Source: Bacillus sp. AFS037270 (GTDB taxonomy: Bacteria; Bacillota; Bacilli; Bacillales_B; DSM-18226). Taken from it: a DNA stretch of 64,000 bases. The stretch's first letter is position 1; each line of letters opens with the position of its first letter. The stretch covers positions 62,001 to 126,000 of the forward strand of contig NZ_NUNF01000016.1 of NCBI RefSeq assembly GCF_002585305.1. The letters run 5' to 3'. The notes below the pieces were generated by a model, which was not told the origin of the DNA, searched no databases, and was given only the letters and a program-made list of their open reading frames with translations. A program made the translations under genes and the position numbers. Shown here piece after piece: positions 9,147-23,053 of this stretch.

Positions 9147-9164
9147 TTGGCACAGTAATTGCAT
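9147..9164 (+). promoter_or_regulatory. Sigma-54 (-24/-12) promoter upstream of pdxS paralogue
   Basis: TTGGCACAGTAATTGCAT matches the TGGCAC-N5-TTGCA consensus exactly, with GG and GC separated by 10 bp. Transcription would start near 9174, giving a leader of about 140 nt before the pdxS-like start codon. In Bacillus, SigL/sigma-54 drives amino-acid catabolic operons. Confidence 0.85.
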
Positions 9165-9311
9165 GTTTATAAGTGAAAAATATATTTTGGATAAGTGTGC
9201 AAGATTATCCATATTTGAGAGGGGTGACAGGAGAAATTCTTTGCATTTATAAGAAAACAAAACAAATGAATTGAAATGAAATGATTCATAATCATCAAAG
9301 GGGGATTATCA

Positions 9312-10193
9312 ATGAGTACAGGTACGGATCGTGTAAAAAGAGGCATGGCTGAAATGCAAAAGGGCGGCGTCATAATGGATGTTGTGAATGCTGAGCAAGC
9401 AAAAATAGCAGAGGAAGCAGGAGCGGTAGCTGTAATGGCATTGGAGCGCGTACCTTCTGATATCCGTGCAGCTGGCGGAGTAGCAAGAATGGCAGATCCA
9501 CGAATTACAGAAGAAGTTATGAAGGCAGTTTCCATTCCGGTTATGGCAAAAGCACGTATCGGACACATCGTTGAAGCCCGGGTGCTTGAAGCTATGGGCG
9601 TTGATTATATTGATGAGAGCGAAGTTTTAACACCGGCTGATGAAGAATACCATCTAAATAAAAAAGTTTACACTGTTCCATTTGTTTGTGGCTGCCGTGA
9701 TCTAGGCGAAGCAGCTCGCCGTATTGGTGAAGGTGCATCCATGCTTCGTACAAAAGGAGAGCCGGGAACTGGTAATATCGTAGAAGCAGTTCGTCATATC
9801 CGTAAGGTAAATGCACAAGTAAGTAAAGTCGTTTCAATGAGTGAAGATGAATTGATGACAGAGGCTAAGTTACTAGGAGCTCCATATGAACTTCTTGTCG
9901 AGATTAAGCAGCTTGGGCGCCTACCTGTAGTAAACTTTGCAGCTGGTGGAGTAGCAACTCCTGCTGATGCTGCACTTATGATGCAGTTAGGTGCTGATGG
10001 TGTATTTGTTGGTTCCGGAATCTTTAAATCTGATAACCCAGCAAAATTCGCTAGAGCTATCGTGGAAGCAACAACCCACTACCAGGACTATCACCTAATT
10101 GCAGAGATTTCAAAAAATCTTGGAATTGCAATGAAAGGTATTGAGATCTCAACTCTGTCTCCTGAAGCGCGTATGCAGGAACGTGGTTGGTAA
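9312..10193 (+). CDS. pdxS: Pyridoxal 5'-phosphate synthase subunit PdxS (stand-alone paralogue)
   Basis: 293 aa, full length. PdxS builds PLP from ribose 5-phosphate, glyceraldehyde 3-phosphate and ammonia. The residues matching B. subtilis Asp24, Lys81 and Lys149 are present as Asp23, Lys80 ('MAKARIGH') and Lys148 ('RTKGEPGTGN'). Unlike the usual pdxS-pdxT operon, no pdxT glutaminase gene follows, so this copy would borrow PdxT from elsewhere or use free ammonia. It lies behind a sigma-54 promoter and ahead of a lysine-degradation island with three PLP enzymes, suggesting inducible PLP supply (inference). ATG 9312 follows AAAGGGGGATTATCA. Only a weak AT-rich hairpin follows the stop. Confidence 0.92.
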   Translation: MSTGTDRVKRGMAEMQKGGVIMDVVNAEQAKIAEEAGAVAVMALERVPSDIRAAGGVARMADPRITEEVMKAVSIPVMAKARIGHIVEARVLEAMGVDYIDESEVLTPADEEYHLNKKVYTVPFVCGCRDLGEAARRIGEGASMLRTKGEPGTGNIVEAVRHIRKVNAQVSKVVSMSEDELMTEAKLLGAPYELLVEIKQLGRLPVVNFAAGGVATPADAALMMQLGADGVFVGSGIFKSDNPAKFARAIVEATTHYQDYHLIAEISKNLGIAMKGIEISTLSPEARMQERGW

Positions 10194-10290
10194 AAAATTT
10201 TTAATCTTTGTGGAAGGTTCTTGTCAGTAAGAGATAATAATTTATATATTATTATAGTTTTTAAAAATAGTCGTAAACCGTTTCCAGATA

Positions 10291-10305
10291 TTGAAAGCGC
10301 TTTAA
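10291..10305 (+). promoter_or_regulatory. Catabolite-responsive element (CcpA cre)
   Basis: TTGAAAGCGCTTTAA matches the cre pattern WTGNAANCGNWNNCW at all but one position. It is centred about 35 bp upstream of the -35 box at 10333, a position compatible with either repression or activation by CcpA. Confidence 0.6.
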
Positions 10306-10332
10306 CATATTTGAAAATTTAGAATATTATTA

Positions 10333-10361
10333 TTGACATTGTTTTTTCTGACCCGTATACT
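10333..10361 (+). promoter_or_regulatory. Sigma-A promoter for the DUF3870-like gene
   Basis: TTGACA (10333-10338), a 17-bp spacer and TATACT (10356-10361) form a near-consensus housekeeping promoter. Transcription would start near 10368, about 40 nt before the ATG at 10409. Confidence 0.8.
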
Positions 10362-21115: not shown

Positions 21116-21117
21116 AG

Positions 21118-21396
21118 TTGATTTGTCAATGGTGCGAATCCGAAACAGTACGTGAAACGAGCAACACAGTGTATTGGGAACTTCCCGATGGAACAAAAGT
21201 AATTGAAATTCAGGGCACACCGTCCATTCTATGCCTGGAATGTGGAATGAACTATCAATCAGATACGACGGTAAAAGAAATTGAGGATCAGCTATATTTG
21301 ATTGATTCTTCCAAGCTTGAAAAAAGTATGAAGTATGAAACCCTAATGGCTGCTCCGCGCTTATTGAAGCGAAACTACTTTGATTTTTCCAAATAA
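21118..21396 (+). CDS. yokU: YokU-family small zinc-ribbon protein
   Basis: 92 aa. Two CxxC pairs, 'CQWC' at residues 3-6 and 'CLEC' near 40, form a YgiT-type zinc ribbon. YokU-family genes follow kamA in Bacillus; the function is unknown and could be a helper or regulator of KamA expression (inference). It starts with TTG 21118 behind AAAGGAGGAATAAAG, only 2 bp after the kamA stop, so it is translated with kamA. Confidence 0.8.
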   Translation: MICQWCESETVRETSNTVYWELPDGTKVIEIQGTPSILCLECGMNYQSDTTVKEIEDQLYLIDSSKLEKSMKYETLMAAPRLLKRNYFDFSK

Positions 21397-21449
21397 ATAG
21401 CGAGCCGTCTCCCGTTTTTCGATAACACCAGCAATGAACTTTTATTCTT

Positions 21450-21496
21450 ATGGACAATTTATCCCTGTTATCTTCAAGAAAGGATAAATTGTCCAT
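21450..21496. promoter_or_regulatory. Perfect 15-bp inverted repeat before the permease gene
   Basis: ATGGACAATTTATCC (21450-21464) and GGATAAATTGTCCAT (21482-21496) are exact complements with a 17-nt loop. No T-run follows, so it is not a standard terminator. It sits 70 bp upstream of the permease start and could be an RNA stem or a regulator site. Confidence 0.6.
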
Positions 21497-21565
21497 ACAA
21501 TCTGCAATAATAGATTCTTATAGTTAGATAGATTCTTAGTGTTTAAAATGGAAGGGAGACAAGAC

Positions 21566-23053
21566 ATGGAAGCAATCAAAAGCTATACAAATAAAAATCA
21601 GAAAAATCAAAATAATATAGAGGGCGAACAGCAAATTAAACGCAATTTAAAGGCACGTCACCTGACGATGATTGCTATTGGAGGATCAATCGGGACAGGG
21701 TTATTTTTAGCAACAGGGGCGTCCATTCAAACGGCTGGACCAGGTGGCGCGCTAATTGCGTATGGAGCTATTGGCATCATGGTCTACTTTTTGATGACAA
21801 GTCTCGGAGAAATGGCTACGTTAATACCGGTTTCGGGATCTTTTTCAACATATGCCAGCCGTTTTGTTGATCCGGCATTTGGTTTTGCGCTTGGTTGGAA
21901 CTATTGGTTTAACTGGGCCGTTACACTTGCGGTTGAAATAGTTGCATCCGCTATTATAATGAAGTTTTGGTTTCCGGATGTACCGAGCATCCTATGGAGT
22001 GCACTTTTTTTAGGATTAATATTTTTATTGAATGCGTTGTCGGTTAAAAGTTACGGAGAATCCGAGTATTGGTTCTCCTTGATAAAAGTAGTGACAATCA
22101 TTGTTTTCATTGGAGTCGGTTTGCTCACCATTTTCGGTATTCTGGGCGGGCAGTTTATCGGGTTTAAAAACTTTACTTTAGGCGATGCTCCGGTTCATGG
22201 TGGTCTTTTATCCATTTTAAGTATTTTTTTCATCGCAGGTTTTTCTTTCCAAGGCACGGAACTTGTCGGGATTGCTGCAGGAGAAAGTGAAGAGCCGGAG
22301 AAAAACGTACCAAAGGCGATTCGACAAGTATTCTGGCGTATTCTTTTGTTCTATATTATCGCGATTGCTGTCATTGGCCTTATTATTCCTTATACAAGCC
22401 CTAATCTGTTGGGCAGGGATGTCGATAGTATCGCTGTCAGCCCTTTTACCCTTGTATTTGAGAAAGTGGGCATTGCATTTGCGGCATCGGTGATGAATAC
22501 GGTCATTTTGACATCGGTCTTATCGGCAGGGACTTCTGGTTTATATGCATCGACTCGAATGCTTTGGTCGATGGCAAAGGACGGACAGGCACCAAAATTT
22601 TTACAAAGAGTAAATAATCGCGGGATTCCAATGAATGCCCTTGTCACAACGACCATTATCGGAGGCTTGGCCTTTTTAAGTTCCATTTTTGGAGATCAAG
22701 TGTATACATGGTTATTAAATGCATCCGGTTTAACTGGATTTATTGCATGGATTGGAATTGCTGTCAGCCACTACCGTTTTAGAAAAGCATATATCGCCCA
22801 GGGCAAGGATATAAATGATTTGAAATTCAGAGCCAAATGGTTCCCATTCGGTCCGATTCTCGCTTTTGCCATTTGTGTCTTTGTCATTTTTGGCCAAAAT
22901 TATCAAGCTTTTATAACTAGTGAGATTGATTGGTATGGAGTAGCCGTGTCTTATATTGGTTTACCGATCTTCTTGGCAGTATGGCTCGGGTATAAAGTAA
23001 TCCATAAAACGAAGATCGTTCCACTAAAGGAATGTTCTTTTGAAGAGAAGTAG
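21566..23053 (+). CDS. Amino-acid permease of the APC family, LysP-like
   Basis: 495 aa with about twelve transmembrane helices. The N-terminal 'ARHLTMIAIGGSIGTGLFLATG' signature and 'FFIAGFSFQGTELVGIAAGE' in the middle are typical of the lysine-specific permease branch of the APC superfamily. At the end of a lysine-degradation island it probably imports lysine. ATG 21566 has AAGGGAG 7 nt upstream; starts at 21539 (GTG) and 21548 have none. A perfect inverted repeat precedes it, so it may be regulated separately from kamA-yokU. Confidence 0.85.
   Translation: MEAIKSYTNKNQKNQNNIEGEQQIKRNLKARHLTMIAIGGSIGTGLFLATGASIQTAGPGGALIAYGAIGIMVYFLMTSLGEMATLIPVSGSFSTYASRFVDPAFGFALGWNYWFNWAVTLAVEIVASAIIMKFWFPDVPSILWSALFLGLIFLLNALSVKSYGESEYWFSLIKVVTIIVFIGVGLLTIFGILGGQFIGFKNFTLGDAPVHGGLLSILSIFFIAGFSFQGTELVGIAAGESEEPEKNVPKAIRQVFWRILLFYIIAIAVIGLIIPYTSPNLLGRDVDSIAVSPFTLVFEKVGIAFAASVMNTVILTSVLSAGTSGLYASTRMLWSMAKDGQAPKFLQRVNNRGIPMNALVTTTIIGGLAFLSSIFGDQVYTWLLNASGLTGFIAWIGIAVSHYRFRKAYIAQGKDINDLKFRAKWFPFGPILAFAICVFVIFGQNYQAFITSEIDWYGVAVSYIGLPIFLAVWLGYKVIHKTKIVPLKECSFEEK

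What the first reader, a model, noticed from the sequence alone, without database searches (positions are those of the whole stretch)
9147..23053. A lysine-to-succinate catabolic island with its own PLP synthase, partly under sigma-54
Seen: a perfect -24/-12 promoter before a stand-alone pdxS, then CoA-transferase A/B, thiolase, two class III aminotransferases, aldehyde dehydrogenase, M81 hydrolase, GNAT, kamA, yokU and a LysP-like permease on one strand, most genes overlapping. Known: KamA makes beta-lysine; the B. subtilis yodTSRQP-kamA genes and some anaerobes process acetylated beta-lysine. Inference: the added thiolase, gabT and gabD allow lysine to go via 4-acetamidobutyryl-CoA and GABA to succinate, a fuller route than the B. 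subtilis cluster, with PdxS providing PLP to KamA and both aminotransferases.
Basis: partly seen in the sequence, partly recalled or inferred. Interest (0 to 1): 0.82.

Follow-up and report, generated by a model that had tools for sequence, protein, structure and literature searches.

The report
Second, parallel lysine-to-GABA gene island
A soil Bacillus relative appears to carry a second gene cluster for eating the amino acid lysine, parallel to the known one but with different enzymes for adding and removing a protective acetyl group, and with a fading vitamin-B6 synthesis gene at its head; it gives testable gene candidates for steps of an old pathway.

Summary
Thirteen genes on one strand (9312-23053) encode PdxS, DUF3870, a 3-oxoacid CoA-transferase pair, thiolase, two class III aminotransferases, aldehyde dehydrogenase, an M81 hydrolase, a GNAT, KamA, YokU and a LysP-like permease, behind a -24/-12 promoter at 9147. 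Best reading: lysine is degraded through acetylated beta-lysine, thiolysis and GABA to succinate, the scheme of Barker's Pseudomonas work (recalled). Chemistry is inferred. It is not an enlarged B. subtilis yod-kam locus: 22 of 22 island genomes checked have two or more KamA matches, and 7 of 7 second loci fetched are of the yodQ-yodP-kamR-kamA kind. YodQ and YodP are found in 0 of 32 island-type loci; a GNAT outside the AblB family beside an M81 hydrolase takes their place, a candidate non-orthologous replacement. The sigma-54 promoter and two dyads occur in 18 of 24 loci, with or without pdxS. Seven of 23 genome-wide dyad sites lie at roc loci and seven at islands, and a RocR-type gene adjoins the island in two genomes, so RocR is the likely activator. 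The lone pdxS is the remainder of a second pdxST pair, intact here but lost by different deletions in close relatives, so its PLP role looks optional. New variant of a known kind.

The parts
9055..9076 (+). upstream dyad A, TTTTTGCAGTCTAAGCGCAAAA, candidate enhancer site
   Evidence: in 18 of 24 loci, 91-94 bases before the -24 box (103 in L003); same kind of dyad beside rocR with its own -24/-12
9088..9107 (+). upstream dyad B, AGTGCCAATAAATTTTGCAT, candidate enhancer site
   Evidence: in 18 of 24 loci with up to 3 mismatches, 58-60 bases before the -24 box (71 in L003)
9147..9163 (+). sigma-54 (-24/-12) promoter TTGGCACAGTAATTGCA
   Evidence: in 18 of 24 loci (L004 with one change), 7 of them without an intact pdxS
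9312..10193 (+). pdxS, stand-alone PLP synthase lyase subunit, a paralogue of the canonical pdxS
   Evidence: TIGR00343 513.9 bits over 438.45; dN/dS 0.06-0.14 against 11 of the 12 other intact island copies, 0.04 against L017
10292..10305 (+). cre-like box TGAAAGCGCTTTAA
   Evidence: cre-like element (up to 3 mismatches) upstream of the sigma-A promoter in 23 of 24 loci, 19 of them at this distance; 92 of 4800 shuffles
10333..10361 (+). sigma-A-type promoter TTGACA-17-TATACT
   Evidence: 24 of 24 loci
10409..10738 (+). DUF3870 protein, function unknown
   Evidence: PF12986; confident model (pLDDT 93.9) without a PDB fold match at E<=0.001
10926..11582 (+). 3-oxoacid CoA-transferase subunit A
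   Evidence: TIGR02429 over cut-off
11584..12246 (+). 3-oxoacid CoA-transferase subunit B
   Evidence: TIGR02428 over cut-off
12246..13436 (+). thiolase, proposed to split 3-oxo-6-acetamidohexanoyl-CoA
   Evidence: TIGR01930 over cut-off; substrate inferred
13424..14809 (+). class III aminotransferase, YodT-like, proposed to act on N6-acetyl-beta-lysine
   Evidence: PRK07483 486.8 over 485; 41-44% to canonical YodT
14784..16088 (+). class III aminotransferase, GabT-like
   Evidence: TIGR00700 382.9, below its cut-off 506.65; nearest solved chain is GABA aminotransferase PuuE, 326 bits
16129..17589 (+). aldehyde dehydrogenase, proposed succinate-semialdehyde dehydrogenase
   Evidence: the only solved chain at E<=1e-100 is a succinate-semialdehyde dehydrogenase; best model is alpha-ketoglutaric semialdehyde dehydrogenase, below cut-off
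17655..19178 (+). M81 (MlrC-like) zinc hydrolase, proposed deacetylase
   Evidence: PF07364 and PF07171; zinc residues E15, D144 kept in 29 of 29 and H146, H168 in 31 of 31 proteins that cover them
19166..19645 (+). GNAT acetyltransferase, proposed beta-lysine N6-acetyltransferase, not AblB family
   Evidence: GNAT Pfam hits only, no TIGR03827 hit; overlaps M81 by 13 bases
19706..21115 (+). kamA, lysine 2,3-aminomutase
   Evidence: TIGR03820 635.1 over 525.4
21118..21396 (+). yokU, small zinc-finger protein
   Evidence: TIGR03829 over cut-off
21539..23053 (+). LysP-like amino acid permease
   Evidence: PRK10836 742.2 over 735

Best explanation
The island is a second lysine-catabolic operon of Bacillaceae. 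Lysine enters through the permease; KamA turns it into beta-lysine; the GNAT protects the 6-amino group by acetylation; the YodT-like aminotransferase makes 3-oxo-6-acetamidohexanoate; the CoA-transferase pair activates it; the thiolase splits off acetyl-CoA and leaves 4-acetamidobutyryl-CoA; the M81 hydrolase removes the acetyl group (and perhaps CoA) to give GABA; the GabT-like aminotransferase and the aldehyde dehydrogenase give succinate. Transcription has two inputs: a sigma-A promoter with a cre-like box, and a sigma-54 promoter with two enhancer dyads, most likely served by RocR or a RocR paralogue. The pdxS is what is left of a second pdxST pair docked in front of the operon. Shown here: gene content, order, conservation, promoter architecture, mutual exclusion of M81/GNAT and YodQ/YodP. 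Inferred: every substrate, the regulator, PLP supply.
For: Core order DUF3870-scoA-scoB-thl-yodT-gabT-aldh-M81-GNAT-kamA-yokU in 22 of 26 fetched loci. KamA over equivalog cut-off. Island genomes also keep the canonical locus. YodQ and YodP in 0 of 32 island-type loci but 7 of 7 canonical loci; M81 in 32 of 32 and GNAT in 30 of 32 island-type loci but 0 of 7 canonical. GabT over the TIGR00700 cut-off inside 2 of 7 canonical loci (L068, L070). M81 zinc residues kept in every protein that covers them. Sigma-54 promoter with both dyads in 18 of 24 loci. RocR-type ortholog in 22 of 22 island genomes, beside the island promoter in G128 and G144 and as a C-terminal fragment in L022. Of 23 genome-wide TTTTGCA-N6-8-TGCAAAA sites in 14 genomes, 7 are at islands and 7 within 6 kb of rocR.
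Against: The island's own GabT-like protein is below the GABA transaminase cut-off and the aldehyde dehydrogenase passes none of the 25 models shown; its best is alpha-ketoglutaric semialdehyde dehydrogenase. The module occurs without kamA in the stretch in 6 of 32 loci, in four of them with oxidase-like genes; 5 of those 6 genomes have KamA elsewhere, G195 has none over cut-off. L075 and L076 have M81 but no GNAT hit; L024 has no gabT in the stretch held. The -24/-12 and dyads are missing in 6 of 24 loci. Nine of the 23 dyad sites are at neither place, and only one of the nine was looked at. No activator gene of the KamR or RocR kind lies in the 64-kb window, and the window's genome is not held, so its regulator and its canonical locus were not seen.
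Confidence: 0.72

Rival explanations
1. The island is a more general module for omega-amino 3-oxo acids (acetylate, transaminate, activate, thiolyse, deacetylate). KamA is one of several feeder enzymes; elsewhere a sarcosine/opine-oxidase-like complex feeds it, so lysine is only one substrate.
For: The module with oxidase-like genes and no local kamA in L024, L072, L073 and L074 (families checked for L024 and L073, the other two by reading the frames); no KamA over cut-off in G195.
Against: kamA is in the same locus in 26 of 32 island-type loci, and 5 of the 6 kamA-less loci lie in genomes with KamA elsewhere, so the oxidase may simply release lysine from an adduct.
Confidence: 0.2
2. The CoA-transferase and thiolase serve acetoacetate or short 3-oxo acids and are only neighbours; the KamA-GNAT pair makes N-acetyl-beta-lysine as an osmolyte.
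For: Acetyl-beta-lysine is a known osmolyte made by KamA/AblB pairs (recalled; related titles and abstract starts); the A subunit also scores 236.6 bits to the acetate CoA-transferase model, below its cut-off of 315.
Against: Conserved gene order in 22 of 26 loci with a deacylase-type hydrolase, GabT-like and aldehyde dehydrogenase genes; the GNAT is not AblB; cre-like box and sigma-54 promoter fit catabolism.
Confidence: 0.06
3. One reading: the sigma-54 promoter exists to make PdxS, which supplies PLP to KamA and the two aminotransferases.
For: pdxS full length in 13 of 23 loci and under purifying selection; PdxS uses ammonium, and may suffice without PdxT (passages of PMC6522883 and PMC9997740); other lone pdxS copies sit in ectoine-type clusters.
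Against: Promoter and dyads remain in 7 loci where pdxS is broken or gone; L001, L002 and L020, the closest relatives by M81, lost pdxS with different junctions; a pdxS-pdxT pair elsewhere in 17 of 17 genomes.
Confidence: 0.2

Closest known systems
yodTSRQP-kamA locus of B. subtilis and kam locus of B. thuringiensis (KamR, sigma-54)
   Same: KamA, YokU, a YodT-like aminotransferase, a CoA-transferase pair, a sigma-54-type promoter
   Different: No YodQ, YodP or KamR-type gene in the locus; adds thiolase, GabT-like, aldehyde dehydrogenase, M81, a different GNAT, DUF3870, pdxS and a permease; the island dyads were not found before 6 of 6 canonical kamA -24/-12 sites; the two loci coexist
L-beta-lysine degradation of Pseudomonas B4 (Barker and co-workers; recalled, nothing on point found)
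   Same: Each recalled step has a gene of a fitting family here
   Different: Pseudomonas enzymes were studied biochemically; here nothing is assayed, and M81 as the deacetylase is a proposal
RocR/sigma-54 arginine catabolism regulon (rocA, rocD, glutamate dehydrogenase)
   Same: -24/-12 promoter plus two upstream dyads; dyad A as before the roc permease in several genomes; a RocR-type gene beside the island in two genomes
   Different: Target operon is for lysine; dyad B differs in its half sites from the roc sites; binding not tested
MlrC / peptidase family M81 (3iuu, 7ylq)
   Same: Both Pfam domains and the zinc ligands
   Different: Only 174.5 and 163.0 bits to the two structures; proposed substrate is a small acetamido acid

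Membership tests
yodTSRQP-kamA (abl/kam) locus | KamA lysine 2,3-aminomutase | tested here: met
   TIGR03820 635.1 bits over 525.4
yodTSRQP-kamA (abl/kam) locus | AblB/YodP beta-lysine acetyltransferase (TIGR03827) | tested here: not met
   no hit for the island GNAT, 304.2 bits over 205.1 for canonical YodP; 0 of 32 loci
yodTSRQP-kamA (abl/kam) locus | YodQ M20 deacylase | tested here: not met
   0 of 32 island-type loci, 7 of 7 canonical
yodTSRQP-kamA (abl/kam) locus | KamR activator gene inside the locus | tested here: not met
   tblastn with KamR and RocR finds nothing in the window at E<=1e-4
Barker beta-lysine to succinate pathway (recalled) | one gene of a fitting family per step | tested here: met
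   family level only
Barker beta-lysine to succinate pathway (recalled) | enzyme activities on the acetamido intermediates | not testable with these tools
   needs purified enzymes and labelled lysine
Clostridial lysine fermentation (kamDE, kdd, kce, kal) | beta-lysine 5,6-aminomutase and keto-aminohexanoate cleavage genes in the cluster | tested here: not met
   none among the family hits of the 13 island genes; scheme from passages of PMC3149608
sigma-54 regulon | conserved -24/-12 element | tested here: met
   18 of 24 loci
RocR regulon | RocR binding sites and RocR dependence | tested here: inconclusive
   shared dyads and adjacency in two genomes; no binding test; window genome not held
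PdxST PLP synthase | PdxS lyase subunit | tested here: met
   TIGR00343 over cut-off
PdxST PLP synthase | adjacent PdxT glutaminase | tested here: not met
   no pdxT hit in the window island; full-length hit in two pieces in L022, parts in L005, L018, L026
Peptidase family M81 | both MlrC domains and the zinc ligands | tested here: met
   the MlrC model itself is far below its cut-off (168.7 against 999)

The most novel reading that the evidence does not exclude
The M81 hydrolase and the short GNAT are a non-orthologous replacement of the YodQ/YodP protect-deprotect pair, and M81 is the gene for the 4-acetamidobutyryl-CoA deacetylase (thioesterase) step of the beta-lysine pathway, for which I recall no known gene. 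The operon was drawn into the RocR arginine regulon by sharing its enhancers, and carried a dedicated PLP synthase pair that has since decayed; lone pdxS copies in ectoine-type clusters suggest that docking a PLP synthase onto PLP-demanding catabolic operons recurs in Bacillaceae.
Probability: 0.4. Interest if true: 0.75.

Novelty: new variant of a known kind. Interest (0 to 1): 0.58.

Why it matters
If true, many Neobacillus, Robertmurraya and related soil bacteria hold two parallel lysine pathways: one close to the B. subtilis locus, whose KamA is made in sporulation (passage of PMC6522883), and one built like a vegetative catabolic operon under carbon and nitrogen control. It supplies a single-gene candidate for a deacetylase step, a function for one clade of the M81 family, and a natural series in which a cofactor synthase docked to an operon is lost step by step.

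Tried and rejected
Rejected: an enlarged yod-kam locus (two loci coexist). KamR as activator (the island dyads were not found before 6 of 6 canonical kamA -24/-12 sites; in the seventh locus, L071, no -24/-12 was found). The other exact -24/-12 match at 792 (inside a GH43 gene). Plasmid origin (megablast: one record of 72,556, with a pdxS-sized match only). DUF3870 function by fold: confident model but no PDB match at E<=0.001. My first activator scan used a GAFTGA-type motif that the canonical KamR itself does not match, so I repeated it with whole proteins. My first count of M81 zinc residues used a filter that favoured one of them; one search repeats it without that filter. Dead ends: the extra dyad in G011 (L079) has no -24/-12 or activator gene in the 11 kb fetched; eight further dyad sites away from islands and roc loci were not looked at; paper searches for the acetamidobutyryl step found nothing on point; the paper on the B. 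thuringiensis kam locus is not held. Not done: other enhancer-binding proteins of these genomes were not compared as alternative regulators.
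Full report
Observation. The window carries, on the + strand from 9312 to 23053, pdxS, DUF3870, 3-oxoacid CoA-transferase A and B, thiolase, two class III aminotransferases, aldehyde dehydrogenase, an M81 hydrolase, a GNAT acetyltransferase, kamA, yokU and a LysP-like permease. The -24/-12 element TTGGCACAGTAATTGCA is at 9147-9163.

Relatives. One scan of genome contigs with the M81 protein gave 26 loci, four of them from one genome (Neobacillus pocheonensis). 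In 22 of 26 the order DUF3870-scoA-scoB-thl-yodT-gabT-aldh-M81-GNAT-kamA-yokU is complete (in L015 and L022 some genes are in pieces). L021, L023 and L025 are cut by contig ends; L024 differs. The window's closest relatives by M81 are L001, L002 and L020 (95-96%). The window's own genome is not held.

Two kam loci per genome. In a search of 193 genomes of the family of G002, 163 have a KamA over the cut-off. All 22 island genomes looked at have two or more KamA matches (16, 6). A copy outside the island and over the cut-off is listed for 21 of them; the list is cut, and for G011 only the number is seen. The copy outside the island in G013 has one stop codon. The seven second loci that I fetched hold yodQ, yodP and kamA in 7 of 7, a KamR-type gene beside kamA in 7 of 7, the CoA-transferase pair in 7 of 7, and yodT in 6 of 7, L068 being cut before it. 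So the island is a parallel locus and not an extension of the known one.

Replacement of the acetyl pair. YodQ and YodP are found in 0 of 32 island-type loci (window, 26 loci, 5; some cut by contig ends) and in 7 of 7 canonical loci; M81 is in 32 of 32 and the GNAT in 30 of 32 island-type loci and both in 0 of 7 canonical ones (tblastn, E<=1e-8). The island GNAT (159 residues) has no hit to the AblB model TIGR03827, which canonical YodP passes. M81 keeps the zinc ligands of MlrC (E15, D144, H146, H168 for E39, D167, H169, H191) and H110 and D310 (for H133 and D332, whose alanine variants have no values in the paper's table): E15, H110 and D144 in 29 of 29 and H146, H168 and D310 in 31 of 31 proteins that cover the place; in 2 loci the frame starts later, and L076 gave no frame (alignment; MlrC residues from passages of PMC9982164, which prints the last ligand once as H196 and once as H191). 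I read this as a protecting acetylation by the GNAT undone by M81. This is inference.

Route. A 3-oxoacid CoA-transferase followed by a thiolase fits cleavage of a 3-oxo acid to acetyl-CoA and a shorter acyl-CoA. GABA as an intermediate is supported by the nearest solved chain of the GabT-like enzyme (PuuE) and of the aldehyde dehydrogenase (succinate-semialdehyde dehydrogenase, the only one at E<=1e-100), and by GABA transaminases over the TIGR00700 cut-off inside 2 of 7 canonical loci, L068 and L070; these two sit at the same place and need not be independent of each other. Against it, the island's own GabT-like protein is below that cut-off (382.9 against 506.65), and the aldehyde dehydrogenase scores best to alpha-ketoglutaric semialdehyde dehydrogenase, passing no cut-off among the 25 models shown. 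The scheme matches the beta-lysine degradation described for Pseudomonas by Barker and co-workers; that is recalled, and my paper searches (listings only) found nothing on point.

Results against. Six of 32 island-type loci have no kamA in the stretch. L072, L073, L074 and L024 have genes for a sarcosine/opine-oxidase-like complex (families checked for L024 and for L073), and L024, L073 and L074 an amino-acid ABC transporter. Five of these six genomes have KamA elsewhere; G195 has none over cut-off. The module may therefore serve more than lysine. L075 and L076 have no GNAT hit. At class level an M81 of 60% identity or more was found in 6 of 398 genomes, so the module is uncommon.

Promoter. 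The -24/-12 element and two dyads (TTTTTGCA..TGCAAAA 91-94 bases and AGTGCCAA..TTTGGCAT 58-60 bases before the -24 box; 103 and 71 in L003) are present in 18 of the 24 loci that hold this region, window included, and absent from L010, L011, L015, L016, L018 and L023. In 7 of the 18 pdxS is broken or gone (L001, L002, L004, L006, L007, L008, L020). The sigma-A promoter is in 24 of 24, a cre-like box with up to 3 mismatches in 23 of 24 against 92 of 4800 shuffles. No terminator-like site is listed between pdxS and DUF3870 on the + strand, but a weak one lies between DUF3870 and scoA at 10756-10778, so read-through from the sigma-54 promoter is possible, not shown.

Regulator. No KamR- or RocR-type gene lies in the window. 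A genome-wide search for TTTTGCA-N6-8-TGCAAAA gave 23 sites in 14 genomes (none in three of them; the reversed pattern gave one site in each of two genomes). Seven are the island dyads of G003-G008 and G011. Seven lie at roc loci: beside the activator gene in G003, G004, G007 and G008 and about 4.7 kb from it in G002, G012 and G017 (coordinates; G002 read, where the dyad and a -24/-12 precede a permease). The other nine are elsewhere; one was looked at (L079). Orthologs of this activator are in 22 of 22 island genomes at 62-100% identity (one of them partial) and form one clade apart from KamR (100/100). In G002 it stands next to rocA and rocD (both over equivalog cut-offs) and a glutamate dehydrogenase gene, so I call it RocR. 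In G128 and G144 a member of this clade is divergent from the island's pdxS and shares its promoter region, and in L022 a C-terminal piece of one remains there: 3 of 26 loci. Bt kam control by KamR and sigma-54 is known (passages of PMC4428206), and RocR activates roc operons through upstream sites with sigma-L (passages of PMC4813224). RocR control of the island is inference.

pdxS. Among 23 loci (window, L001-L020, L022, L026) pdxS is full length in 13, a remnant or scar in 6 (L001, L002, L004, L007, L008, L020; in L002, L007 and L008 only a few codons at the ends) and undetected in 4 (L006, L010, L016, L018). The junctions differ between L001, L002, L020, L004 and the L007/L008 pair. A pdxT match follows pdxS over full length in two pieces in L022 and in part in L026 and L005; 10 of the 13 loci with intact pdxS have none; a pdxT piece remains without pdxS in L018. 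A pdxS-pdxT pair exists elsewhere in 17 of 17 genomes. Intact island copies are under purifying selection (dN/dS 0.06-0.14 against 11 of 12, 0.04 against L017 with near-saturated dS); 12 of 13 group together, not starred (92/87), and L017's falls with canonical copies. I infer a second pdxST pair in front of the operon that lost pdxT first in most lines and is now losing pdxS. That PdxS may suffice with ammonium rests on passages of PMC9997740 and PMC6522883. Other lone pdxS copies lie in ectoine-type clusters (L029; L027 by reading its frames).

Verdict. Ordinary in its chemistry, unusual in its parts: a new variant of a known kind, with one strong testable proposal (M81 as the deacetylase) and one regulatory proposal (RocR).

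Noticed in passing
3615-5666 +: A single 683-residue frame joins an ECF sigma-like N-terminus (TIGR02937 44.0 bits over 42.9) to a weak anti-sigma-like stretch and DUF4179/DUF5643 domains: perhaps a fused sigma/anti-sigma protein.
   Followed up: no
8616-8915 +: A PaiB-type FMN-binding gene cut short (profile 1-94 of 168) lies just before the island promoter.
   Followed up: no
5763-6878 -: A stand-alone protein like the N-terminal part of UvrC (371 residues; below the uvrC cut-off).
   Followed up: no
L031:4665-8018: In Priestia abyssalis another lone pdxS is followed by a ferredoxin-like gene, a DUF3870 paralogue 91% identical to the window's, and on the other strand a permease-like gene.
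   Followed up: partly
L027, L029: Lone pdxS copies in ectoine-utilisation-type clusters (for L029, EutB-, DoeA- and EutC-type proteins, each below the ectoine-specific TIGR cut-off).
   Followed up: partly
L072, L073, L074, L024: The island module without local kamA, with sarcosine/opine-oxidase-like genes; substrate unknown.
   Followed up: partly
L021, L022, L023, L025: Neobacillus pocheonensis has four island-type loci, all at contig ends and with broken frames, perhaps assembly errors in diverged repeats.
   Followed up: no
L079:5437-5457: In G011 a second site with the island-type dyad lies far from the island, without -24/-12 or activator gene in the 11 kb fetched.
   Followed up: no
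10409-10738 +: DUF3870, the conserved first gene of the operon, has a confident predicted fold without a PDB match at E<=0.001.
   Followed up: partly
L070:8762-10024 - (G013): The canonical kamA of G013 holds one stop codon while its island kamA is open, so there the island may be the only working copy.
   Followed up: no
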